Source: Thelonectria olida (lineage: Eukaryota > Ascomycota > Sordariomycetes > Hypocreales > Nectriaceae). From it: a stretch of DNA of 64,000 nt. Of the stretch, positions 1 to 64,000 are shown piece after piece; position 1 is the stretch's first letter, and each line of letters opens with the position of its first letter. The stretch is from NCBI GenBank assembly GCA_020736575.1, contig JAGPYM010000088.1, forward strand, positions 1-64,000, written 5' to 3'. The translations under genes and the position numbers were made by a program. The notes below the pieces were generated by a model. The model was not told where the DNA came from. It was given only the letters and a program-made list of their open reading frames with translations, and did not search any database.

Positions 1-2200
1 TATTTATTTTATTTATTTTATTTATTTTATTTATTTTTTTATTTTATTTTATTTATTTTATTTATTTTTAGCTTTTTACTATTAAATATTTTAACTATTT
101 TAAAAAAGTATATAATTAAAAATAAAAATATTAATTTAAATATTTTATAACTTATATTTTAAAAATAAAATTCTTTTTAATATTTTATATTATATATTAA
201 GCTATTATAATAAAAAGAAATATTATATTAATTTTTAAAAAAGTAAAATTTATTTCTTTTAATTTAAAAAATATAATTTTAAAACTTAATATATAAATAT
301 AAATTTTAATACTTATTAAAAAGTTATTAGCTTTATATTTCCTTAAGCTTTAAAAACTTTAAAAATTATTTTTAAAGTTTAATTCTAATTTATATATTTT
401 AATATTTAAACTTAAAAGTATTAAAAAAGCTTTTTTAAATTAATTTTAAAAGCTTTTAAGTTTTTTATTAAAAAAATTAAAATTATTATATATAAAAATA
501 CTTTATTAAAAGCTATAATTTAAAACTTTTAATAAGTATATAAAATATTAAACTTTTATATTTAATAATATTTATTATTATATAAACTTTTTAATATATT
601 TTACTATTTAATTATTTTATTTTATTTCTATTAATTTATATACTTTTAAACCTATTTTAACCTTTTTTAACCTTTTTCTTTTTATTTAGCCTTTTTAACT
701 TTCTACTTTTTAACTCTTATATTTATTTAACTAACCTTTTATTTGTAAATTTTCCTTTCCTTTTAAATAACTATTTAAATTATTACTATTATATATAATA
801 GCTTTTAAAATTATAACTTATAAGTATTTAATTAAATTATTTTAATAAATTACTTATTATTATTATTAAAATAGTTTTTTCTTTTCCTTTTAAAAAGTTT
901 TATAAAGTTTTTAACTTTCTATTTAAAAATATTATAATAGTTTTAATTTTTATAATTAATTATTTTTATTATTATATTAACTCTTTTATATATTTTTCTA
1001 CTTAATTACCTTACTTATTTTTATTATTTTTTAAATATAATTTACTTAATAAAAGTTTTTATTTAAAAGCTAATTATTAACCCTATAAAAAAGCTTATTA
1101 TAATAGATTTAAGGCTGGGTTTTACTTATATTAACTTTTATTATATACTAGTATTAAGCTTATTTTAATAAATACTAATAGTATTAATATATATTAAATC
1201 TTTTAATTAAAATCTTATAACTTAAAATAATTAAATTAATCTTTTAATTAATATTTAATAGTATATTTATATTAAATAATACAAAAATACTTAAAAGTTA
1301 TAACTCTTTTATATACTTATTAAAGTCTTTTATTAGCTTAATATATTTAAAAGAATTTATATATTTTAATATATAGTAAGTAGCTATATAATTTCTATTA
1401 CTTAATTAAATTATATTATATTTAATTAATATAAAGTTAAATATTTTAATTATTATATATTATATTATTAGTTAAGTTATATAAACTAGAGTTAAATAAA
1501 AAAATAAGTACTTTTATATTAAAAGCTTAAAATAACATTTTTTAAGAAAGGTTTATTTAAAAAAAAACTATCACTTTAAAACTAATTATAAGCTCTATTA
1601 AAAAGCTTATTATAATAAATATAAAGCTAAAGTTTAATTTATATTAATTTCTATTATATATTTAAATTATTAGCTTTTTTAATAATAATAAAATATTAAA
1701 CTAATATTAAAAATAAACAGAATTTAATTATATAAATAAAAAATAATAATAGTAAAAAAGAAAAAATAAATAATTAATTAAATAAATATTAATATATAAA
1801 TAATAGTAAAATTATTTAAAAGTAATAATTAAATAAAGTTAATTAAATTAAAATTTAATTTTATAAATTATAAAATAAGCTTAAATATAATATAATATAA
1901 TAAATAGTTTTAATTAATTAATTAATTAATTATACTTTTATATTAATTTATAATAATAAAAGTTAAAAAAAGTAATTTACTTATTTAAATAGTTTACTTA
2001 TTTATTAAATATATTATATTTATTTAATTATATATAAAAGTTTTTTTATAAAATGCTCTATTTTTTAATTAAAAGTTAAAATTCTTTTAATAATCTTTTC
2101 TAATAAAAAATACAATTAAAAGGTATAAAATACGTAAGCTAAAATAATTAATCTTAATAGCTTATTTTTAAGCTAGGCAAGTATTTCCCTATTAATTATA
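1..2200. repeat. AT-rich RIP-type block
   Basis: This stretch is almost pure A+T with scattered AGC/GCT words. CA, TG and CG dinucleotides are nearly absent while TA is abundant, which is the dinucleotide pattern left by repeat-induced point mutation of duplicated DNA in ascomycetes. No open frame of note exists. The first 70 bases are a (TATTT/ATTT)n microsatellite. Internal segments around 1090-1210 and 1595-1700 resemble each other, and 1381-1680 resembles 42050-42370, so this is a decayed copy of a dispersed repeat. The original element type cannot be recognised. Confidence 0.85.
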
Positions 2201-2283
2201 GCTAGCCCTTACTATAAATAGAAAGAAATGTGTTTTTAGCAGACAGACCTATTACTTTTATCCAGTTTAAAACGTTTTATTAT

Positions 2284-2370
2284 TAAACCGATCAGGGCAT
2301 AAAAGTCACTTTATTGCTTTTTAACAAAACGGAATTTTACTTTATTACCGAGCCGATTAGGGCATAAATG
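2284..2370. repeat. imperfect direct repeat at AT-block edge
   Basis: Two copies of GATCAGGGCATAAA / GATTAGGGCATAAA lie about 65 bp apart, each preceded by an AACGTTTTATT / AACGGAATTTTACTTTATT-like stretch. They sit between the AT-rich block and the first gene. They may be the end of the decayed element or just a local duplication. Confidence 0.4.
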
Positions 2371-2403
2371 AGCTTTGCTAATCCCGCCCGCATTTGACAT
2401 CCT

Positions 2404-5215
2404 TTACATTGACCCTTGCTGCCACTCTTGTGCCCAAATTTGCGATATATCCTGCTCTAACAATCCCATCATATTGCGACTTCCTGACATCCAGTTCGCT
2501 ATATGCGTCACTTGAGAACTCTTAACAACCGTTGCATCGGGAGTCCCCGTAGCATCGATGGCAGTCTGCACCACAGGCAAAAGTCCCAGCTGGCTTAGGT
2601 ATACGTCGAACTGGTCCCCGATCGGTACCATGGCTTCGTCCTCTTGCGTTTGTGACTTGGCCTCAACATAAAGCGTCGCGACGTTGCTCATGACTTGCCA
2701 CAGGTGCCATAGCTTCTGTACAGTCTCAGACGAATCGATAGCCGCTTCAAGAGACGCACTGAAGGCTTTCAAAAGTCGAAGATCTTCTGCTGACAATGTC
2801 TCGATGACATAGCAAAAGATAACAAAGAAGGGAGCGAAGGGAGTCAGGACCAAGTTCCTGCGAAACGATATTAGCGATATAGGTCAATATTCGTGGCAAT
2901 TAGCCTTGTCATACCAATGCAGATAAATAGACTTCGCCAAAGCGTCACGTTGAACAAGTTCCATGCACGACAAATGCTGTTGCATCGCTCTTCGCGCTGC
3001 GTCATCGCATTCGTCAGAGAATCCACTGTTAGATCCTTCGGGCGGAGGAATGGCTCGGTAGATCAGTGTAATAGTTGACAACAGTTGAACTTCATCTCCT
3101 TTGACGTAGATATCCACTAGAGGGGAGGTTCCGATCTTCTTGAGTGAGCTGACGGCCCTTCCTCGATACTCTATCGCATCTAACTCCACCTGGCGACACT
3201 CGGCTCCCAGCATGCGAGCTCGCTCTGCCAGTTCGGAGTGCGGCTGCGCCAAGGCAGCGGGGCTATATCTGCTGGCTCGTTAGCTTTGGTGATTCTTGTG
3301 GCAGGCGTGTGTAGAACTCTGGAGGAAAGACGGACAGTCGCTCATAGAGGTGGCCTTGAAGCGTCGCCAGTCTCACCCACATCATCGCCACGCCAGACAT
3401 CTCAAGGCTCATTGTGGTTTCAAAGTTGAAAGCGCGGGGAACGTCGACATCCCAATCTTGGATCGCAGGTGCGCGGCCAAGACGTAACCCAAGCGCTTTA
3501 TCCTGCGTGTAGATGCACCAGAACAAGGTGGATTTGACGTCTGAAGTAGCAGGGTCACGTTTCAACTGTTCTTGTCGGTGGAACCCTGCTGTCTGACATA
3601 TTTGGGCGGCGGCGCAGTTAAGATGCCAAGCGACGGTTGGCCTACTCACATCAATCGCGTACAGAGTCTATCCTGCAGTCAGCGATGTTGGGCTATTTCG
3701 GCTACGCGACAAATTGCCTCAGCTTACACCCAGCAAAAGAGCCTGGACGCTTTCGATCTTCAAAGACATAAAGAGGGAAACGTTTGCGAGCGACGTCTCA
3801 AGGTTAATTCGACATAACTGGATCAACGGCTCGAGTTCGTCCTTGGTCGCCTTGCCTGGGGCGAGCGTGTGCTGTTCTAAAAACAAATAGTACAAACCAG
3901 CATTGACAATTACAAAGGTTGCATCAGTAAAGTCGTCGGTAGAGAAGTAGACCAGTCGGCAGAGTTTTGCGAAGTCACTAACCCCCACAAAAGAGCAGAC
4001 AAAGGTGAAGAGACCTGGTGAAGACGCTGGCTTGATCTGTCAGCTGCAAGACCAGACAAATACGAAGCGAGCTAGGGCGGAGCACAAAACTTGCCTCTAA
4101 TCTGTTTAAGAAGGCGCACAACAACGTCCATGGGAGGCATCGGCAGTTGGCCGAGACCACCCACGGGAATGCGTTGCTGCAAAGGAAAGCGAGGCCCGCA
4201 GCTGATGGACTGGTGCGCTTGGAGCTCTACCAAATGCCTCAGACTTGACAAGGCCTCTCGCATCTCGGGGTTGGAATCATGGAGCGAGGTACGCTCGACG
4301 GCATTCACGAGGAGCTCGCTGGCATGGGTGGTGTGGGAGGTGAGGAAGGAATCGCCGCCAATCGCCGACTCATCACCGGAGCTCGCATAGTCGATAGTCG
4401 AGCCTGCAGCCGTGCCTGCACCACTGCTGTTGCCGGTGGAGAGATGAGGAATGCCAGGGAGTAGGAAATTACAACCGGTGGTAAAGGCGAGGCGCTGGGG
4501 GAGGTTACGGACCAGGGTCTCGATGTTGTTCAGGCGTATCTCGATCTGGTCGACCTTGTGCTCACTGCAGATAGTAAATGTCAGCAATGTGTCCGCTTGA
4601 TTTGCCTGGACGGTGCAGTTTGAGAATGGACAAGTCAAGGTCAGAAGAGGAGCGCAGACAAGAGGGGGACTGACTATTGGGACGAGATCAAGACTCGCTG
4701 GCGAGGTTCTCTGGGCCGCTTACCAACACCTATCGATGTACAGGAGCGCTCAGCGGTCCGACAGTTGGAGCATGGCAGTTCTTTATCGCAGCGAATCTGC
4801 AAAAGTGGTACGGCCGAGGTTATTCACTGTGTTCACGTTGCCATTCCGCGCCATGCAAGAGGCAGCGTCATCGGTAGCCGGGACATTTGCTTACCTTGCG
4901 CGTACGGCATTGATCACACTGGAAAAATAAATGAAAGGGCTTTAGTTAGCACAGACTCAGAAACTATAGGGAAGTAAAAGACCGCGACAGCTTGTTTCTG
5001 TACACCAATTTCTTTTTTGAAGAGCCTAGAACAGATGAGTATTCATGCTATCTTCAAAGTCCTAAATCTGAGTGACAAACCGGACCACACAACCAGAAAA
5101 AGAATCAGCTCTCGATGGGATTCATTGAGAGATGACTTACAGCTCTTCGCGCCAAGTCATCGGAGGCCGGTCTTTCACCGCCCTCATGTCCTGGATCAAT
5201 GCTCTGTTGATCCAT
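2404..5215 (-). CDS. Zn2Cys6 transcription factor (eight exons)
   Basis: A fungal binuclear zinc-cluster regulator, nuclear by family. Exons on the minus strand: 5141-5215, 4895-4918, 4675-4796, 4095-4564, 3728-4026, 3336-3667, 2915-3262 and 2404-2857. All phases close, giving 707 residues. The zinc cluster is split by introns: CDQC begins at residue 26 on a 24-nt exon, and the rest (IRCDKELPCSNC, last Cys at 52) follows on the next exon. A linker GKRPREPRQRVLISSQ and a short heptad-like helix (YEHKVDQIEIRLNNIE) come next, then a fungal-specific transcription-factor middle region (VYFSTDD, GTLYAIDVSRP, LYERLPAALAQP). The intron at 4027-4094 appears to be GC-AG, and two donors are weak (GTCAGT, GTCCGT). 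Its target is unknown; it lies next to the monooxygenase/hydrolase pair and could control it. Confidence 0.88.
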
Positions 5216-53531: not shown

Positions 53532-56500
53532 CTACAACTTGGCCTTCAAACTGTCGTCTACTGCGTCTAGACCTGATGGCCCATCATAAAGCTGAGGTTT
53601 CAGTAAAGCGGCGTTGACCTGTTGGGTCGCCAATCAGTCCAGTGACCTTCTCCAGCTATACGGGGAGGAAATACTCACATGACACGGTCCAAGGTCACTC
53701 ACACGGCTGACACCGAGCAGTCTCATCGTTGTGATGGCTTCATCCACCAGTACTGGGATGCAAAGTTAGTACCGCGAGCAAGGGGTCGTCTGCATCAGTG
53801 ACTCACTTTGCAGTGATCTGGAAACGCCTTCCTCTCCGCCCACTGCTAGTCCATACAGTGCCGCTCGACCAAGTCCGACACCCTTCGCACCTAGGGCCAG
53901 CGCCTTGATAACATCCGAACCCCTCTTGATACCTCCGTCAACCAACACCTCTAATTGATCAAGAACCTGCGGGCAGAATTTCCTGATTTCCAGCAACACT
54001 TGCATTGGCGTGTTGGCAGTGTCCAGGGCCCTACCACCGTGGTTGGAGAGAATTATGCCCTTGACGGCCGGGAATTTGGTTGCTGCGTAAGCATCCTCAT
54101 GAGTCTGAATGCCCTTCAGCACAATCGGAAGATCGGTGTGCCTACACAGCCAGGATAACGTAGTGTGCCAGGTGAGGGCTGATTCCGTCCCCCAGACCTG
54201 CGGAGGTGCCCCTTCTGCGACTTTTGCGGCTTTGTAGCGCTCATCGGCTTCCCTTTTCCCCGGGAATGGAGCATCGAGAGTCAGGACGATGAATTTGATC
54301 TGCGAGATTGCCTTGATCCGAGCCAGGGTCCTCTCTGTAGCTTTTATATCCTTGAGAACGTAGAGTTGCCAGGCAAAGACTGCATCAGGGCCTCCACGCA
54401 CGATGTCTGCCACCGAGATGGATGCGTTCTTGCTGATGATCTGGAGTGCATTGAACTTGGAGCAGGCGGCTGAAATGCCAATTTCGCCTGAAGGATGTGC
54501 TAATTTGGCCATAGCTGCTGGGGCAATGAAGATTGGAATGCCGACCCTGTTGCTTAAGATGGTGGTGGATAGTGAACAGTAGGAGTTGTCAACAAAGACC
54601 CTTGGTCGGAGCAAAATGGACTTGAAGATGCTTCCATTGGCGACTTTCGTGATCTCATCATCTGTTCCGGATGCGTAATACGCGAGAGCCTTCGGACTTA
54701 GTCGTTCAAGGGCTAGGCCTTCCATCTCTGCAATGCTTTGTATAATTGCTATCTGAGGAGACGCAATCGTCGTTGAGGCCGTGCTTCCCTGATTTCTTGC
54801 AGTGGGTTTGTCCTGGCTAGTGGACTCTAGCTTGCCCAAAAGCTGCTCAGTATCAAGATACTCATCTAAGAGTTCAGCTGGATGCACCTCTTTGAAGGCA
54901 TTCGTTGCGTCAGTGCCGGCGTGTCGAAGAATGATGGCCTTTCCTCCAGGGTGATTACCCAGGAAACTGGTGACCTGAAGCTGGTTAGTCGCAGACAAAT
55001 GAAGCCGAGACCGGTATATCCATATCGATCGTTTTGTTCGCTCACTCACATTGTAGACGTTGTCATGGATTGCAATCCAACAGTCGTCTTCGGTCGCGTG
55101 GTTTTGCACTGGTGTGGTCAGGCCCTTGGCTGTACGTGATGAAACAAAAAGGGTTATGTGGTGATATTGAAAGGTCTAAGTTACATGTGTCTGTGAGGAG
55201 CACGGCTCACTAAATATCCACATCCCAGCCAGCAGCAGATTGGACCATCTTAGTCATACGGTCTCAACACTCCCACTCGAGCTGCTGTTGGACTTCATGT
55301 GCAGGCCTGTCGAGTCTCGTTAAAACCCCAAAAACACCTTCGTGGGTGAAAACTGCAGGGAAAGAGCCATCTCGACTCAGGCACTTTGGAAATTCTTGAC
55401 AGCTCCATGCAATCTTGGGGCAGTGGGTCTTCCTCCATCCGCAGAAGATCTCCCACCTAGGTTCATCTTTGCACCTTTTTTCTCGGTAGTGCAATCTTAA
55501 AACCATGGGTCTTCTTCTGTCCACAGACGATCCCCCACTGAAGCCCATCTTTGCACGCTCTGTTCAATACAGCGCAATCTTGCGACCACAGGTCTTCTTC
55601 TGTCCGCAGAAGATCTCCCTCTAAGCTCATCTTTGCACCTTCTTCCCAGTCCAGTACAATCTTGAACCCATGGGTCTTCTTCTAACTATAGAAGATCTCC
55701 CACTTGAGCTCATCTTTGCACCTTCTTCCTAGTCCAGTGCAATCTTGAGCCCGTGGGTCTTCTTTTTGTCCACAGAAGATCTCCCGCTGAAGCCCATCTT
55801 TGCACCTTCTCGCGAATCCATGCAATCTTGGGATCGCAGGTCTTCTTCTACCCGCAGAAGATCTCCCACCAAAGCTCATCTTTGCACCTTTCCTCTCAGT
55901 CCAGTGCAATCTTGAACTTATGGGTCTTCTTCCGTCCATAGAAGATCTCCCACTGAAGCCCACTTTTGCACGCTCTTTTCAACTCAGGTACAATCTTGAG
56001 TCCATGGGTCTTCTGTCCATGGTAGGTCTCCCACTTCAGTCCATCTTTGCACGTTCCTCACGCTCAGTGCAATCTTGGATCTGTGGGTCTCCTGTCTGTC
56101 CATGGTAGGTCTCCCATCCATGCCCATCTTTGCACGTTTTCACAATCGTCGTTCTTTGAGACCCAAAGCTTCCCGAAATAGTAAGAAGCGATCCTTCGGC
56201 AAAGCCTTCGTCAGCCCGTCAGCGACCTGCTTGCCTGTTGGAATGTACTGGAAGTCAACGATTCCATCATTGACCTTCTCCCTGCAGTAATGATGTTGAA
56301 TATCAATATGCTTGGTTCTTGCATGGAACTGGGGATTCTTCGACATTGCGATCGCTCCTTGGTTGTCCCCAAAGATCACAGTTGTCTTCAGTTCTGGGAC
56401 CTCCCTGTACTCTTTCAACAGTTCCTGGAGAAGGCTTCGCAACCAGACTGCTTCCTTCGCTGCTCCCGTTTGCCCCATGTATTCTGCTTCACATGAGGAC

Positions 56501-59500
56501 AGGGCAACAGTCCTTTGTCTCTTCGAGCTCCAGCTAATAGCGCCCGTGCCAAGGTTGAACACGTATCCAGACGTTGACTTTCGAGTCTCCAGATCTCCCG
56601 CCCAATCCGAGTCGGTGTAGCCGAGAAGAGGTTGCAGCTTTCCTTGGTACATCAGTTCCAGATTGTTGGATCCTTTGAGATATCGAAAGATACGCTTGAC
56701 AGCGGTCTGATGTTCGTTGGTTGGGTTTCCCAGGTGTCGACTGCATAGAGAGACGGCAAAGGCAATGTCGGGTCTCGTCCCAAGCATGAGATACATCAGG
56801 GATCCAATCGCCTTCGCATACCACTGCTTGAGTTCATCGGTTGCCTTGTAGTCGGAGTCTGGTTCGCCGAATTTGCTTGTGGCAACTGGCGTGGCATTAG
56901 GGGCGCATTGATCCATTCCAAAGTCTCGAAGTATTTTCTCCAGGTACGTTGTCTGCGACAAGGAAATCGATCGGTTCGCCCTGTCTCTTCTCAAGGACAT
57001 GCCTAGGTAATATTTGCATGGGCCCAGGTCTGTCATCTTGAACTTGTTGCACAGAGCTTGCTTGACTGCTACGATCTCGTCCTTGGAGGGTCCAGCAATA
57101 AGCAGATCGTCCACATACACCGCAATGAACGTGTGACCTTTCACGAAGACCCCCAAGTCTGAAAGTAAAGGCTTGAACTCGAGTGTCTCGAGGAAGGTCG
57201 AGAGGGTCTCGTACCACACCCTTGGAGCTTGCTTCAGTCCATATAATGCTCTCAAGAGCTTACAGACTCTCCCACTTCCATCGTCGAATCCTTCGGGTTG
57301 TTCCACGTATATCTCCTCAGTTACGAGGCCATAGAGGAAGGCTGTCTTGACGTCCATTTGTTCCAGTTCCAAGTCGAGTGCCGCCGCGATGGCAAATATC
57401 ATCTTGTAGCTCATCGGCTTGACAACAGAGGCGAAGGTTTCGTTGAAGTCAATTCCTTCCCTTTGCTCGAATCCTCTCACGACAAAGCGGGCTTTGTACC
57501 GCAGAACCTCCCCATTTTCCCCTCGTTTGAGCTTGAACACCCATTTGCCTCGAAGGGCCTTTCGTCCTGGTGGAAGCGTAACTAGGTTCCAGACACCATT
57601 CTCGATTAGAGATCCGTGTTCATCCTTCAGTCCTCTCCACCAGAGTCTTCCATGAGGACCCTGAGTGGCTTCCTTGAAGGTTCTTGGTTCTGACTGGTCG
57701 ATGTCGCGAGCAACTAGGTACAATTGTCTTGCAATTGTTGCGAGGAAGGCGAAGTTTGTGCTGGCCAGTATGTATCTCGATGGCAGCTGTCCTCTGGTCG
57801 ATCTCTCGGGCAGCCGAGACTCTGCGTGCCGTTCTGTTGCTTCCGGTGGCGCCTCGTGCTCATCTGTGGCAACATGGATACTCGACCTGGTTGACTCTTG
57901 GTCCAGATCCCATCCTGGATCTCCCACTGAGGACTCATCCGAGGTCGTCTCTCCACGGCCAATCTCCTCAGTTCCATTTGCCTCTCCTGACGCGATCGGA
58001 AGCGGCGACGGTTCTAGAATGACAGGATTTTCCACGCCGGTGTTCTGTTCTCTGTCTACCCGTCGTCGTTGCAATGGTCTCTGGTCACTCATCTGATGCG
58101 TGAGATTGTCGAGTGTTGGTTCGACACTTTTGATGTTTTCAGAGAAGACGACATTGTTAGACACAAAGACTCGCCCCCTTTCGTCAAGAAGAAAATAGTT
58201 CGTACTACCCTGATAGCCGAGAAGCTGACAGGGAGTGCTCCTGGATTGCATCTTCTTTCGTTTAGAAGATGGAAGTAGAGCCCATCCTCGTGAGCCAAGG
58301 ATTCGCAGGTGGCTGAGATCAGGAACATCTCCATACCAGGCTTGGTATGGAGTGGTGGAGATGCTCGCCGTGGGACAGAGATTTCGGACGTGGTTCACTG
58401 CCTTGAGGAAGTATGGCCACCATTTCAAAGCAAGTCCGGATTTGACCAGTGTGGGCGTGAGTTTTTCCATGATGATTCGATTGAGAACCTCTGCCAATCC
58501 GTTTTGTTCGTGTTGCTCTGTCGCTGTGTACGAGAGATGAATTCCTCTGTCCCGGCAGAACATAATCAGGATGTGGCTTCGATTTTCTCCTCCTCGATCG
58601 AGATGAAGGAAATGGCATCGCCTTTCCGGTCTTTCGAACTGCTCCAACAGATGCTGGAAACATTCTTCGAACTCTGACTTTTCTTTGATTGGATATACCC
58701 AGGACATTTGAGTAAAGTCATCAATAAAGCAGGCCCAGTATCGGCTCCCGTCTACTCCCACTTCCGGGAAGGGGCCGGCAATGTCCGCATGAATACACTC
58801 CAGGGGGTAAGTTCCTTTCTTGATCGGTCGAACATGGGGGCATTCCTTGAGTTTGCCTTGCACGCAAGCTCCACATGGGTTTGATGTAGACTCGTCCGGT
58901 CGAATTCCAGTAGACATCTTCATCAGTCTCTTAATGTTTCTCTCTCCCAAGTGTGCGAGTCGTTCGTGCCAAAGATGCAGTCGAGGGTCTCCCACTGAAA
59001 AGGAGGCCAAAGCGGTTTGAAAGTGATCTTCCTCAGCTTCGTCGACCACATAGACGCCTGAGATCCTTGTTGCGGTGAGGACGACTTTTCCTTTGTTTGT
59101 GACCACTGCCTTCCCATTTCGGAAAAGAACTTCTGCCCCATTCTTCTCCAGTGCTGACACGGACAGTAGGTTTGAGCATCCTTCCGGAACATACAGAGCG
59201 TTCTCGAGAGTGACATTCTGTGGCCCCTTGGGTCCTTGCACTCGGAGGGAGTATGTTCCACGTCCTCCTGGCATAACTGTTGCGTTTGCAATGCCATTGA
59301 TTGGGAGTCCCTGGTACTTGTGAAGGACTGTAAAGTACGTAGACCGGCAGAAAATGTGTGAGGAGGCACCACTATCCAAGACATGGATCCGTTCGAGGGC
59401 CCGAGCTTGGGGGGATGCCTGAGATCCGGAAAGTCCGAATGACGAGCCAATTAATCCAAGGTGACCTTGGAAGTCATTTTGCCAAAGAGCCAGTCTCGCT

Positions 59501-61321
59501 TGATCAGGTTGGAGGTATGCAGGAGTCGCAGCCATAGCGGATTCCGGTTCATCATTCGTCTTCTCCTTTTCCTTCTCCCGTCTCTGCATTTTTCGTTGTC
59601 GTCTCTCGTGACCTGTCTTTTCATGCTCCCTTCTGAGTTCCGGGTGAAGTTTCCAGCAAGTTGACTTGTTGTGCCCTTTTCTTCCACAGTGTCCACAACC
59701 TAAGGTATCCTGGGCCACCATGGCTCTTTGAGCAATCCTTGCAGTGGCCCCTCTTTGTCTGTCCTCTTCTTGGGATGCGGCAAAGATAGCAGTTTCGAAC
59801 GTAACGGCCTCATTGAGGATAACGTTGCGGTTGTTTGGATCTCGGATAGGAAGGATGTTATGGTTCTGATTGAAAGCAGTGAGGAAGACTTCATAGTCTG
59901 GACCAAGTCCGCAGAGGAACTTGTTGACAAAGTGTGGTTCCCCAATCTGGCAGATTTCATCCATCTCTAAGAGTTCCGCCCTTACTTGACGAAGCTTGTT
60001 TGCATATTCCATAACCGAACCACAAGAGTCAAGAGTGAGTTCTTGGTATCTTCGGTCGAGTTCTTGAAAGATGGCGCTTCCAACGGGGCGGTAACGGGTT
60101 TCGAGGTGACCAATCATGCCTTGGGCCGTTGGGATCCCCGTGGTGAACACTCGGGCGTTGTATCCGAGCCGACTTCGGATGGCGCCGCATGCTCGATCCT
60201 GACGGCTCCTCCAGGCCTCAATCTGTGTTGTGAGGTCGTTCCCTTCTGTTGGTGGTTGAGCGTTCCTGGTCAAAAGGTCTCCGTATCCGCACATGTCCAG
60301 GAGGTCCAGCATTTCTCTCTTCCAGGTCAGCCACTGGCTGGTTTGCTCCAGCTTTGGAATGGTGCTGGAATTGCTAACGAGGTTGAGCGATTCCTTTGAA
60401 AGTGACATTGCGATTTTTCCGAGAGGCTGGTGATCGAGGTACAGTGGGGACAGACAGCTTTCGACAGGTTTTAGATCGAGGGTTTGGGAGTCTTCTTGTC
60501 TTCGTTAGGCGATCTCTGCTGCAAGAGTTTTTATTAGATCGGAGTCATCTGATTCGCGCTCCGAAGGAGTAAGATTGATAGTGTCACTCCCATTGTCTGG
60601 GGAGGGGGCAATAATCTGATTTCGACCATCTGACACACCACTTCGGACGGTCTTGCATAATCTGAGTCAGCCTGAGTAGGCTGATTTTCCAGCCGTTGGC
60701 TGGCTCCACCTCGCAATGTGAACAAAAATAACGGGACGTGACGTGTCCTCACGGGCGACTTTCGCGTGATACCGTTCATCTCGAGGTCAAGACTGGCAGA
60801 CCGAGGGGCTGGTCAAGATCTGTCAGCTTATCGGCCAGGCTGTGGTCTGAGAATCCCTCGGTGATTTGGGGCCGATGGTTAGAATTTGGTGTCTTGGACA
60901 CAGTGGTTAAAGGCTCCTTCTCGAGATATTTCTAGACATATCTTATCAGCTGATTTGCAAACTCTGCGAAAACCAAAGAAGGAGGTAGGTCCAGGTAAGC
61001 TGAATGTGCATGCGCAGTGAAAGGAAGTCTTTCGACTTCTTGTGCTGTCCAGGGAAAGTAAAATGGAAGACAGAAGACACTCAGCTTTTGCGGTTGGAGG
61101 AAGATGGTGCCCTCCGGGCTCATAACCTGATGAAACAAAAAGGGTTATGTGGTGATATTGAAAGGTCTAAGTTACATGTGTCTGTGAGGAGCACGGCTCA
61201 CTAAATATCCACATCCCAGCCAGCAGCAGATTGGACCATCTTAGTCATACGGTCTCAACAGTACGTGCGTCATGATGGTTGATCACTTACGTTCTAACAG
61301 TGAAATACGGTTGCTTGCCAT
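53532..61321 (-). CDS. cytochrome-b2-like FMN-dependent hydroxyacid dehydrogenase, split by retrotransposon
   Basis: Flavocytochrome of 472 residues when spliced. Exons 61291-61321, 55050-55108, 53807-54974, 53679-53752 and 53532-53618; phases close exactly. The N-terminal cytochrome b5 domain has DDCWIAIHDNVYN and heme ligands His38 (HPGG) and His61. The FMN domain follows with PIFIAPAAMAKLAHPSGEIG, AWQLYVLKD, the catalytic-His motif SNHGGRALD, VLVDGGIKRGSDVIKALALG and VGLGRAALYG; the end reads LVDEAITTMRLLGV. It oxidises L-lactate or a related 2-hydroxyacid and passes electrons to cytochrome c. No mitochondrial presequence precedes the b5 domain. Intron 1 (55109-61290) would be 53 bp but contains a 6.1-kb copia element, which may reduce or abolish expression. 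Intron 2 (54975-55049) is 75 bp and in frame, so retention would not cause a stop. Confidence 0.9.
55137..55269 (-). repeat. 3' LTR of copia element
   Basis: 133 bp; begins TGATGAAACAAAAAGGG and ends GGTCTCAACA on the plus strand. It reads identical to the copy at 61128-61260 and is flanked outside by GTACG. Confidence 0.97.
55270..55278 (-). other. polypurine tract of copia element
   Basis: GAGTGGGAG on the element strand directly abuts the 3' LTR, where plus-strand DNA priming occurs. Confidence 0.7.
55385..56135. repeat. 83-bp minisatellite in the copia 3' region, about nine copies
   Basis: The marker GCAATCTT (or ACAATCTT) recurs at about 55409, 55491, 55574, 55656, 55739, 55822, 55906, 55990 and 56069, a period of 79-84 bp. 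Each unit also contains GGGTCTTCTTCTGTCC, AGAAGATCTCCCAC and CATCTTTGCAC. TCTTCTGTCCGCAGAAGA-like segments can fold into a short hairpin in most units. The array lies between the pol stop codon and the 3' LTR and has no long coding frame of its own. Confidence 0.9.
56140..60408 (-). CDS. copia gag-pol polyprotein
   Basis: Uninterrupted frame of 1422 residues. Order: gag (SQWLTWKREMLDLLDMCGYG), zinc knuckle CGHCGRKGHNKSTC (CX2CX4HX4C), aspartic protease (VLDSGASSHIF), pre-integrase HxxH region (LWHERLAHLGERNIKRL, CGACVQGK), integrase D-D-E (HADIAGPF, LDRGGEN, EQNGLAEVLNR), reverse transcriptase (ARFVVRGFEQREGIDF, YVDDLLIAG) and RNase H (YTDSDWAGD, SSCEAEYMG). Integrase before reverse transcriptase identifies Ty1/copia rather than gypsy. 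All key catalytic residues are visible, so it could be autonomous. The gag/pol ratio must be set without frameshifting, since there is one frame. Confidence 0.97.
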   Translation of the reverse strand: MSLSKESLNLVSNSSTIPKLEQTSQWLTWKREMLDLLDMCGYGDLLTRNAQPPTEGNDLTTQIEAWRSRQDRACGAIRSRLGYNARVFTTGIPTAQGMIGHLETRYRPVGSAIFQELDRRYQELTLDSCGSVMEYANKLRQVRAELLEMDEICQIGEPHFVNKFLCGLGPDYEVFLTAFNQNHNILPIRDPNNRNVILNEAVTFETAIFAASQEEDRQRGATARIAQRAMVAQDTLGCGHCGRKGHNKSTCWKLHPELRREHEKTGHERRQRKMQRREKEKEKTNDEPESAMAATPAYLQPDQARLALWQNDFQGHLGLIGSSFGLSGSQASPQARALERIHVLDSGASSHIFCRSTYFTVLHKYQGLPINGIANATVMPGGRGTYSLRVQGPKGPQNVTLENALYVPEGCSNLLSVSALEKNGAEVLFRNGKAVVTNKGKVVLTATRISGVYVVDEAEEDHFQTALASFSVGDPRLHLWHERLAHLGERNIKRLMKMSTGIRPDESTSNPCGACVQGKLKECPHVRPIKKGTYPLECIHADIAGPFPEVGVDGSRYWACFIDDFTQMSWVYPIKEKSEFEECFQHLLEQFERPERRCHFLHLDRGGENRSHILIMFCRDRGIHLSYTATEQHEQNGLAEVLNRIIMEKLTPTLVKSGLALKWWPYFLKAVNHVRNLCPTASISTTPYQAWYGDVPDLSHLRILGSRGWALLPSSKRKKMQSRSTPCQLLGYQGSTNYFLLDERGRVFVSNNVVFSENIKSVEPTLDNLTHQMSDQRPLQRRRVDREQNTGVENPVILEPSPLPIASGEANGTEEIGRGETTSDESSVGDPGWDLDQESTRSSIHVATDEHEAPPEATERHAESRLPERSTRGQLPSRYILASTNFAFLATIARQLYLVARDIDQSEPRTFKEATQGPHGRLWWRGLKDEHGSLIENGVWNLVTLPPGRKALRGKWVFKLKRGENGEVLRYKARFVVRGFEQREGIDFNETFASVVKPMSYKMIFAIAAALDLELEQMDVKTAFLYGLVTEEIYVEQPEGFDDGSGRVCKLLRALYGLKQAPRVWYETLSTFLETLEFKPLLSDLGVFVKGHTFIAVYVDDLLIAGPSKDEIVAVKQALCNKFKMTDLGPCKYYLGMSLRRDRANRSISLSQTTYLEKILRDFGMDQCAPNATPVATSKFGEPDSDYKATDELKQWYAKAIGSLMYLMLGTRPDIAFAVSLCSRHLGNPTNEHQTAVKRIFRYLKGSNNLELMYQGKLQPLLGYTDSDWAGDLETRKSTSGYVFNLGTGAISWSSKRQRTVALSSCEAEYMGQTGAAKEAVWLRSLLQELLKEYREVPELKTTVIFGDNQGAIAMSKNPQFHARTKHIDIQHHYCREKVNDGIVDFQYIPTGKQVADGLTKALPKDRFLLFREALGLKERRL
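61116..61127 (-). other. copia primer-binding site (half initiator tRNA-Met)
   Basis: GGTTATGAGCCC on the element strand directly follows the 5' LTR. It is complementary to the GGGCTCATAACC anticodon arm of eukaryotic initiator tRNA-Met, as in Drosophila copia, where an internally cut tRNA primes reverse transcription. No match to a tRNA 3' end is apparent. Confidence 0.85.
61128..61260 (-). repeat. 5' LTR of copia element
   Basis: 133 bp, reading identical to 55137-55269 and followed by the target duplication GTACG at 61261-61265. It should carry the element's promoter. Confidence 0.97.
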
Positions 61322-61792: not shown

Positions 61793-64000
61793 ATGCAACT
61801 GTCTACGCAAGAGTTGAAGACCGGCTGGTCCATGCGGCGGCGGGAGGACCAGTCCCAAGATCCTTGGCTTCCTGTTCAGCAAGTTCCCAGCCAGGTTCAC
61901 ATTGATCTTCTCGCCAATGAAAAGTACGCGCCACTCACTGCCAATCCACCGAAATGCTAACCAACGACCAGAATTCCTGATCCTTTTGTGGATGCCAACG
62001 AGCTGTTGGTACAATGGATCGCGGAGAAGGATTGGGTCTACCGAACTCAGTTCAGGGCGTCTCCATCTACACTTGTCAGAACGGACTTGGTCTTCTTAGG
62101 ACTTGATACCTTCGCCACAGTCAGTCTCAATGGAAAACCGATTCTGGAATCTCAGAGCATGCACACGTCTCACCGGGTGAACATCTCTGAGCTTCTGCTC
62201 CTGAACCAAGCCAATGAGCTCCAGATCGTGTTTGAATCTGCACTCCTTCGGGTCCGAGAGATTGTCCGTCAGCATCCAGAGCACACCTTTCACGTCCGCC
62301 AAACCGAAGAAGGCCGCATTCCCGTACGCAAATCCCAGTACAACTGGGGCTGGGATTGGGGTCCCATCCTGATGACAGCGGGGCCTTGGCGTCCAGTTCT
62401 TCTTGAACAATACGTTTCAAGAATTGACGATATTTGGGCGCAGTATCAAGTTTCGCCAGATCTCACAACTTGCTCTGGAGACTTGTACGTGAGGGTCGGC
62501 GACGATTCGCAGGCAGGCGACAAGGTACTCCTGTCACTCATCTACGAAGACAAGACAATCTTTCAGAAGGAGTGTCAAATTGACTCGGATGGCCTAGCAA
62601 AAACAGCGTTCCATATTGATGAGCCCTCGCTATGGTATCCGCACGGCTATGGGCCACAGTCCCGCTACCAACTATCTGTAGGACTTATTCGCACAGATAC
62701 GACACTAGATACTAAAAGCAAGCTTCTTGGCTTCCGCCACTGTGAGCTCATTCAAGAGAAGGATGAGTTTGGAAAATCCTTCTACTTCCGCATCAACGGA
62801 GTGGACACCTTTGCTGGTGGTTCGTGCTGGATCCCCGGCGATAGCTATCTCGCGCAGATGTCCAAGGATCGCTACGTTGACTGGGTGAAGCTCATGGTAG
62901 AATCGAACCAGATCATGGTCCGTGTATGGGGCGGCGGTATCTACGAAGACGATGCCTTCTTAGACGCTTGTGACGCCTACGGTATCTTGATCTGGCATGA
63001 TTTCGCATTTGTCTGCGCCAGCTATCCAGTCTACCCCTCATTCCTCGAGACTGTGGAAGAGGAGGCACGACAGAATATCAGACGGATGAGATCTCACCCT
63101 TCTGTGGTCATCTGGGCGGGCAACAACGAGGACTATCAGGTTCAGGAGAGGTACAAGCTGGAGTATCAAGCAAACGACACTGATCCAGACTCCTGGCTGA
63201 AGTCAACTTTCCCAGCGAGGTATATTTACGAGCATCTGCTGCCAAAATGGGTGAAGGAGGAGGACCCCTCGATCATCTATCATCCAGGAAGCCCGTGGGG
63301 TGATGGAAAACATACTACTGATCCTACTGTGGGCGATATTCATCAGTGGAACAGTAAGTCATATCAAATCCTTCTTTGTCGCGACATGGTCTCTGACAAG
63401 AATTAGTCTGGCACGGACAAATGAGACGGTATCAAGACTCTGACCAGCTTGCTGGTCGCTTTGTGAGCGAGTTCGGCATGGAAGCCTATCCCCATCTCGA
63501 GTCCATTCGCCGAGTCATCACCAATCCCCAACAGCAACGACCAGGTTCGATGATGATGGACTTCCGAAACAAGGCCGGCGATCACGAGCGCCGTCTCCTC
63601 ACATACGTCGCCGAGAACTTCCTCGTCCCATCCGATTTGCCATCCTTCACCCACATCACCCAGATACTTCAAGCCGAGACAATGCGGTATTCGTATAAGG
63701 CTTGGAGACGGATGTGGGGACAGGCTGGAGCTCGCATGTGCGGCGGCGTGCTGGTTTGGCAGCTCAACGATTGCTGGCCAACCATGTCATGGGCTGTTGT
63801 TGACTATTATCTTGTCAAGAAGCCAGCCTTTTATGCCATTTCGCGTGCTTTAAGACCCTTGGATGTGGGCATTGCTCGCACTTGTCCGGTGTGGACTTCA
63901 GGCCATGCCAATACAACGACCACCAACACGAGCGACTTTGACGTGTGGATTGCGAGTAGCCATCAGAAGGCAGTTGAAGTCAGCCTGACAGTCAAGTTCA
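61793..64000 (+). CDS. GH2 beta-mannosidase (partial, runs off window)
   Basis: N-terminal ~702 residues of a family 2 glycosidase of the fungal MndB (cytosolic) type, which removes terminal beta-D-mannose from mannan or N-glycan oligosaccharides. Exons 61793-61923, 61972-63353 and 63407 onward; introns are 48 and 53 bp. Sugar-binding domain: WVYRTQF, DLVFLGLDTFATVSLNG, YNWGWDWGPILMTAGPWRPV. Catalytic barrel: NGVDTFAGGSCWIPGDSY, MVRVWGGGIYEDDAF, WAGNNED with acid/base Glu430, and FVSEFGMEAYPH with nucleophile Glu526. LVWQLNDCWPTMSWAVVDYY follows. There is no signal peptide, consistent with intracellular action. It is divergent from the FMN dehydrogenase and close to the sugar permease and regulator. 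Confidence 0.95.

What the first reader, a model, noticed from the sequence alone, without database searches (positions are those of the whole stretch)
55109..61290. Retrotransposon inserted inside a 53-bp intron of a cytochrome-b2-like gene, sense orientation
Removing the element and one GTACG copy restores an intron of exactly 53 bp (GTAAGT donor at 61290, branch CTGAC, acceptor CACCAG) whose flanking exons join in phase to a normal cytochrome b5 start. The insertion therefore spares every codon but makes a 6.2-kb intron, far longer than usual in such fungi, with an internal same-strand promoter and terminator. The gene may be silenced, partly spliced, or driven from the LTR.
Basis: partly seen in the sequence, partly recalled or inferred. 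Interest (0 to 1): 0.8.

Follow-up and report, generated by a model that had tools for sequence, protein, structure and literature searches.

The report
Young jumping gene inside fungal intron
A very recently copied jumping gene sits inside a tiny intron of a fungal enzyme gene without touching its code, which probably shuts the gene down; this is an ordinary kind of insertion, but the jumping gene looks as if it moved between fungal genera.

Summary
A 6124-bp Ty1/copia retrotransposon (55137-61260, minus strand) with identical 133-bp LTRs and a 5-bp target duplication lies in intron 1 of a five-exon, 472-aa FMN-dependent dehydrogenase with a cytochrome b5 domain. With the flanks joined the intron is 53 nt, GT-AG, and the exons join in phase into a peptide start shared with orthologs. 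The organism is Thelonectria olida. The element is young: five other complete copies differ from it by one base in all, and its 1422-aa frame is open. Intron targeting is not supported: of eight loci with identical LTRs, one is in an intron, two appear to be in coding exons, and at five I recognised no coding sequence. The likely effect is loss or strong reduction of full-length enzyme, since the element should bring a same-strand terminator and makes the intron over 100 times longer. This is inferred; no RNA was available. The public gene model lacks exon 1 and begins out of frame in exon 2. A side result interests me most: the element's protein is 95% identical to one of Fusarium falciforme, while two host proteins are only 73-77% identical to Fusarium proteins, which points to horizontal transfer.

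The parts
55137..61260 (-). Ty1/copia retrotransposon, 6124 bp
   Evidence: LTR pair, target duplication, single ORF with copia-order domains
61128..61260 (-). 5' LTR, 133 bp
   Evidence: Identical to the other LTR over 133 of 133
55137..55269 (-). 3' LTR, 133 bp
61261..61265 (.). Target-site duplication GTACG, copy beside the 5' LTR
55132..55136 (.). Target-site duplication GTACG, copy beside the 3' LTR
61114..61127 (-). Primer-binding site, 14 nt complementary to the anticodon arm of tRNA-Met(CAT)
   Evidence: Two tRNA-Met genes in the same genome, among five places fetched
56140..60408 (-). Single gag-pol ORF, 1422 aa, open
55404..56140 (-). About nine tandem units of 82-83 bp between the pol stop codon and the 3' LTR
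   Evidence: rows 55404-56135 and 55424-56140
55270..55279 (-). Purine-rich stretch CGAGTGGGAG next to the 3' LTR, probable polypurine tract (role recalled, not tested)
   Evidence: Sequence printed
61291..61321 (-). Exon 1 of the FMN-dependent dehydrogenase gene
   Evidence: In-phase join and ortholog N-termini
55109..61290 (-). Intron 1 as enlarged by the element, 6182 nt (53 nt without element and one duplication copy)
55050..55108 (-). Exon 2
53807..54974 (-). Exon 3
53679..53752 (-). Exon 4
53532..53618 (-). Exon 5, to the stop codon
55205..55210 (-). Donor-like GTGAGC in the 3' LTR that could splice to 55108 (prediction only)

Best explanation
A recently transposed, sequence-intact Ty1/copia element landed in intron 1 of an otherwise intact FMN-dependent dehydrogenase gene of Thelonectria olida, in the sense direction, with a 5-bp target duplication as left by integrase (structure shown; enzyme inferred). 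The allele most likely makes little or no full-length enzyme (inferred). Transcripts from the host promoter should meet the element's own 3'-end signals in the LTRs, and donor and acceptor now lie 6182 nt apart, beyond the reach expected of intron-definition splicing. A minor correctly spliced fraction is possible because all splice signals of intron 1 are intact.
For: Identical LTRs, target duplication and 53-nt empty intron; intact five-exon gene; ortholog N-termini match exon 1; five other complete copies with one difference in all; no CTRAY-plus-YAG acceptor within 250 nt of the host donor; other introns of the gene are 54-75 nt; intron-definition length limits as described in PMC2397502 (passages).
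Against: No RNA data. The soybean RAC copia element in an intron is spliced out without visible effect (PMC6712407, passages), though it is antisense and in a plant. Only one AATAAA was found in the element's sense strand, at element position 726, and none in the LTR, so the assumed terminator is not seen as a motif. The length limit in PMC2397502 is cited there from Drosophila. No reads were available to exclude misassembly.
Confidence: 0.7

Rival explanations
1. The element is spliced out as part of a 6.2-kb intron and the gene is expressed at a useful level.
For: Donor, branch and acceptor are intact; no competing acceptor with a branch motif near the donor; the gene has no other lesion; soybean RAC precedent.
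Against: Intron far longer than the gene's others of 54-75 nt; sense orientation implies a terminator inside the intron; an intact reading frame is also expected if the insertion is merely young.
Confidence: 0.15
2. The 3' LTR acts as promoter and first exon: the donor-like GTGAGC at 55210 splices to the exon-2 acceptor over 102 nt, giving an in-frame ATG (MWIFMQNHATEDDCW... or MQNHATEDDCW...).
For:: of two donor-like sites scanned in the LTR this one gives an in-frame ATG, and the intron length is ordinary.
Against: The LTR's transcription start is unknown and may lie downstream of the ATG. An exon ending in A is a one-in-four chance. In 7 of the 30 LTRs aligned (L024-L030) the place reads GTAAGG instead, so the exact letters are not kept, although that is also donor-like.
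Confidence: 0.07
3. The public model is right: the gene now starts at 55066 within exon 2 and makes a protein lacking the first part of the b5 domain (MTTSTIFLGNHPGG...).
For: P0001 is the deposited model, and its start can be reproduced from the sequence.
Against: It needs another reading frame and another acceptor; its b5 match covers profile positions 26-73 of 74 only; the nearest orthologs start with the exon-1 peptide.
Confidence: 0.04
4. The element family targets introns or splice sites.
For: This one insertion.
Against: Of 8 loci with identical LTRs, 1 is in an intron; 2 appear to be in coding exons (C98, rhodopsin-like, Pfam match below its cut-off; C79, FAA hydrolase); at 5 I recognised no coding sequence at the junction, C82 being seen from one side only. 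The seven duplications seen (GTACG, GATAA, CGATG, AGCCG, ACCAA, AGTCC, TCTAC) show no obvious common motif by eye.
Confidence: 0.02

Closest known systems
Ty1/copia elements with half-tRNA priming (Ty5 of yeast, copia of Drosophila)
   Same: Copia domain order with RVT_2, single ORF, short LTRs, primer-binding site matching the anticodon arm of tRNA-Met; Ty5 and copia priming from PMC5371799, passages
   Different: 133-bp LTRs and a tandem array of 82-83-bp units in the 3' untranslated region; no sign of the special target choice of Ty5 (that choice is recalled)
Copia proteins of Fusarium falciforme (P0121) and F. oxysporum (P0123, P0125)
   Same: 95.1%, 90.0% and 89.2% identical over the whole ORF
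   Different: Other genus; their DNA, LTRs and locations were not available here
RAC, the intronic copia element of soybean Rhg1 (PMC6712407, passages)
   Same: Intact copia element with an open frame inside intron 1 of a host gene
   Different: RAC is antisense, in a plant with long introns, and is spliced out; here the element is sense in a 53-nt intron
Flavocytochrome b2 (yeast Cyb2; PDB 1fcb, 1sze and others)
   Same: Cytochrome b5 domain followed by an FMN_dh domain
   Different: Hardly any N-terminal extension before the b5 domain; substrate unknown; probably linked to a beta-mannosidase gene

Membership tests
Ty1/copia LTR retrotransposon | Two LTRs with TG...CA ends and a short target duplication | tested here: met
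   133-bp LTRs identical, GTACG on both sides
Ty1/copia LTR retrotransposon | Integrase before reverse transcriptase, RVT_2 family | tested here: met
   gag_pre-integrs 452-519, rve 535-630 (28.8 bits, below its cut-off of 32.6), RVT_2 937-1175
Ty1/copia LTR retrotransposon | Copia-type gag domain | tested here: inconclusive
   Retrotran_gag_2 at 20.9 bits, below its cut-off of 27
Half-tRNA-primed element (Ty5/copia type) | Primer-binding site complementary to the inside of initiator tRNA-Met | tested here: met
   14 nt match the anticodon arm of two tRNA-Met(CAT) genes; use as primer not tested, and initiator identity is recalled
Recently transposed element | Near-identical copies at different sites with different duplications | tested here: met
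   Five other complete copies, one difference in all; different duplications
Flavocytochrome b2 type FMN dehydrogenase | b5 domain plus FMN_dh domain | tested here: met
Flavocytochrome b2 type FMN dehydrogenase | L-lactate as substrate in mitochondria | not testable with these tools
   No presequence visible in the predicted protein; substrate cannot be told from sequence here
Horizontally transferred transposon | Element much more similar between species than host genes | tested here: met
   Element 95.1% against 73% and 77% for two host proteins; proteins only, and other Fusarium species stand in for F. falciforme
Horizontally transferred transposon | Patchy distribution, absent from closer relatives | tested here: inconclusive
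   No row named Mariannaea, Ilyonectria, Dactylonectria or Neonectria among the 120 listed of 7913; many rows are unnamed and annotations often leave transposons out

The most novel reading that the evidence does not exclude
A copia element that recently crossed between Fusarium and Thelonectria and is still spreading has taken over the gene it entered: its 3' LTR acts as promoter and first exon, and the start codon is assembled across the splice junction (A from the LTR, TG from exon 2), keeping most of the cytochrome b5 domain in frame.
Probability: 0.07. Interest if true: 0.7.

Novelty: new member of a known kind. Interest (0 to 1): 0.4.

Why it matters
The case is a clean natural test of how a filamentous ascomycete handles a 6-kb sense retrotransposon in a 53-nt intron: all codons and splice signals are intact, so a loss of expression would be due to length and to the element's own signals. 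It also shows how a young insertion can distort an automatic gene model, which here loses exon 1 and starts out of frame. The near-identical copies and the 95% match to Fusarium make this element a good candidate for horizontal transfer between genera of Nectriaceae.

Tried and rejected
Intron targeting: not supported by the other young insertions. Repeat-induced point mutation of this family: not seen; the differences of four older copies from the young one show no excess of C-to-T and G-to-A and lie mostly at third codon positions, and the dinucleotide indices of the element are not those of mutated DNA (thresholds recalled). Cryptic acceptors near the host donor: five YAG between +40 and +250 but none with a CTRAY branch. 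Poly(A) motif in the LTR: none of four motifs scanned was found there, which does not help my reading. Literature on sense LTR elements in introns of filamentous ascomycetes: searches (20 of 96 listed; 6; 20 of 62; 5) listed no such case that I recognised from titles and abstract beginnings; the library lacks most subscription papers, so I do not claim that none exists. Searches (20 of 64 listed; 12 of 770 listed) showed no title on this Fusarium-Thelonectria element. PMC13148404 (passages) showed no intronic element. PMC3248453 (word search of the main text) does not contain 'intron' or 'horizontal'. One search (9 listed) showed no title on the Thelonectria olida genome, and one search found no paper. 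DNA of other fungi was not searched: the searchable genome collections offered here are of bacteria, archaea, viruses and plasmids, apart from the window's own assembly.

Full report
What is there. A direct repeat of 133 bp frames 55137-61260; the two copies are identical, end in TG...CA and are flanked by GTACG on both sides. Between them lies one open frame of 1422 aa on the minus strand with domains in copia order; RVT_2, SH3, Pol_BBD and gag_pre-integrs pass their Pfam cut-offs, while rve and the copia gag model fall below theirs. The 14 nt next to the 5' LTR are complementary to the anticodon arm of tRNA-Met(CAT); two such genes were found among five places fetched from the same genome. 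Ty5 and Drosophila copia also use a primer cut within the tRNA (PMC5371799, passages). A tandem array of about nine units of 82-83 bp separates the pol stop codon from the 3' LTR.

The host gene. Joining the flanks with one GTACG leaves a 53-nt intron with a GTAAGT donor, a CTGAC branch and a CACCAG acceptor. The gene then reads 472 aa in five exons; its other introns are 75, 54 and 60 nt. Scanned with intron 2 retained, the frame shows a cytochrome b5 domain and an FMN dehydrogenase domain. The database holds the locus as P0001 of Thelonectria olida, on a contig of 72256 bp, which is the length of the window's contig C153. The nearest ortholog, from Mariannaea, is 87% identical over the full query and begins with a peptide like that of exon 1. 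P0001 begins with MTTSTI. I could reproduce that start from an ATG at 55066, in another frame of exon 2, joined to an alternative acceptor; its b5 match covers positions 26-73 of 74. The public model is probably wrong because of the insertion.

Age and family. The LTR search listed 41 places in the 52.5-Mb assembly, a lower bound because 40 of 61 candidates were scored. Eight loci carry LTRs identical to those of the window: six complete elements including this one, one cut by a contig end (885 bp, no difference) and one solo LTR with duplication TCTAC. The other five complete copies are 6124 bp long; four have no difference from the window copy and one has a single difference. Four older copies are 94.9-96.7% identical to it in the ORF at the DNA level, with most changes at third codon positions and no excess of C-to-T or G-to-A. 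So the family has been present for some time and has amplified very recently.

No sign of intron targeting. At the eight young loci one insertion is in an intron. Two appear to be in coding exons: C98 in a rhodopsin-like gene, where the Pfam match is below its cut-off, and C79 near the start of an FAA hydrolase gene. At the other five I recognised no coding sequence at the junction; C93 lies close to a Zn_clus gene, C105 close to a frame without a Pfam match, and C82 was seen from one side only. The flanks of the complete copies were read over about 1.9 kb each. One intron hit in eight is unremarkable if introns make up several per cent of such a genome (a recalled figure).

Likely effect. The element reads in the same direction as the gene. 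A sense LTR element must end its own transcripts within its LTR, so host transcripts are expected to be cut short. This is general knowledge of LTR elements and was not shown here; a scan for four poly(A) motifs found none in the LTR. The intron is now 6182 nt. Fungi are thought to recognise introns mainly across the intron, and a limit of 200-250 bp is cited for that mode from Drosophila (PMC2397502, passages). I found no alternative acceptor with a branch motif within 250 nt of the host donor. I therefore expect little full-length enzyme, with some correct splicing possible. The soybean RAC element shows that an intronic copia element can be spliced out without visible effect, but it is antisense and in a plant (PMC6712407, passages).

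A testable alternative start. The 3' LTR has a donor-like GTGAGC at 55210. Spliced to the exon-2 acceptor it would remove 102 nt and join A to TG, making an in-frame ATG just before QNHATEDDCW; a second in-frame ATG lies 12 nt upstream. Chance could easily give this, and in 7 of 30 aligned LTRs the place reads GTAAGG instead, so I hold it as a prediction only.

Horizontal transfer. The best database relatives of the element's RT region are Fusarium proteins: 97% for F. falciforme and 92-94% for F. oxysporum, followed by a fall to 71% or lower (120 of 7913 listed). Over the full ORF the F. falciforme protein P0121 is 95.1% identical (1352 of 1421), with gag at 284 of 300; F. oxysporum P0123 and P0125 are 90.0% and 89.2%. 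T. olida's own older copy on C132 is 96.3% identical in protein, hardly closer. Host proteins are far more diverged: the dehydrogenase is 73% identical to Fusarium sp. LHS14.1, with a partial F. nematophilum row at 80% over 78% of the query, and the neighbouring beta-mannosidase is 77% identical to F. solani. Neither host list has a row named F. falciforme, so other Fusarium species stand in for it. Mariannaea, at 87% for both host proteins, and Ilyonectria, Dactylonectria and Neonectria are not among the named rows of the 120 element relatives listed. This favours horizontal transfer. It rests on proteins only, on two host genes and on annotations that may leave transposons out.

The gene's setting. 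The dehydrogenase and the divergently transcribed beta-mannosidase (ATG at 61793) are probably an old neighbourhood. Of 120 contig lengths, 41 recur among the 120, the window's own included. Six pairs carry consecutive locus tags, for example NCS52_00290400/00290500 and FE257_007375/007376. A sugar-transporter fragment lies on the other side. The enzyme may therefore belong to mannoside use rather than lactate growth, and further FMN dehydrogenases in the genome could mask a lactate phenotype.

Verdict. It is a new member of a known kind: a young copia insertion in an intron. The functional consequence is inferred and not shown. The match to Fusarium is the part most worth following up.

Noticed in passing
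P0001, public model of this gene; window 55066 and 54966: The deposited protein starts with residues read out of frame from exon 2, uses an alternative acceptor and lacks exon 1.
   Followed up: yes
56140-60408 and P0121, P0123, P0125: The element's protein is 89-95% identical to proteins of Fusarium falciforme and F. oxysporum, far above two host proteins; possible horizontal transfer.
   Followed up: partly
53532-61321 and 61793 onward: The dehydrogenase and beta-mannosidase genes seem to stay linked across many ascomycetes, with a sugar transporter nearby; possibly a mannoside-use cluster.
   Followed up: partly
55404-56140: Tandem array of about nine 82-83-bp units in the element's 3' untranslated region; the older copy C132 also has nine marker motifs. 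Function unknown.
   Followed up: partly
G000 contigs C81-C83, C87, C92, C93, C98, C101, C102, C113 against C13, C88, C116, C117, C159: Reverse-transcriptase matches with long open frames crowd on a set of middle-sized contigs, while matches riddled with TAA and TAG lie on others; the genome may have a transposon-rich compartment that escaped repeat-induced mutation.
   Followed up: no
1-4000: Very AT-rich stretch, GC 0.27 against 0.49 for the window, perhaps old mutated repeats.
   Followed up: no
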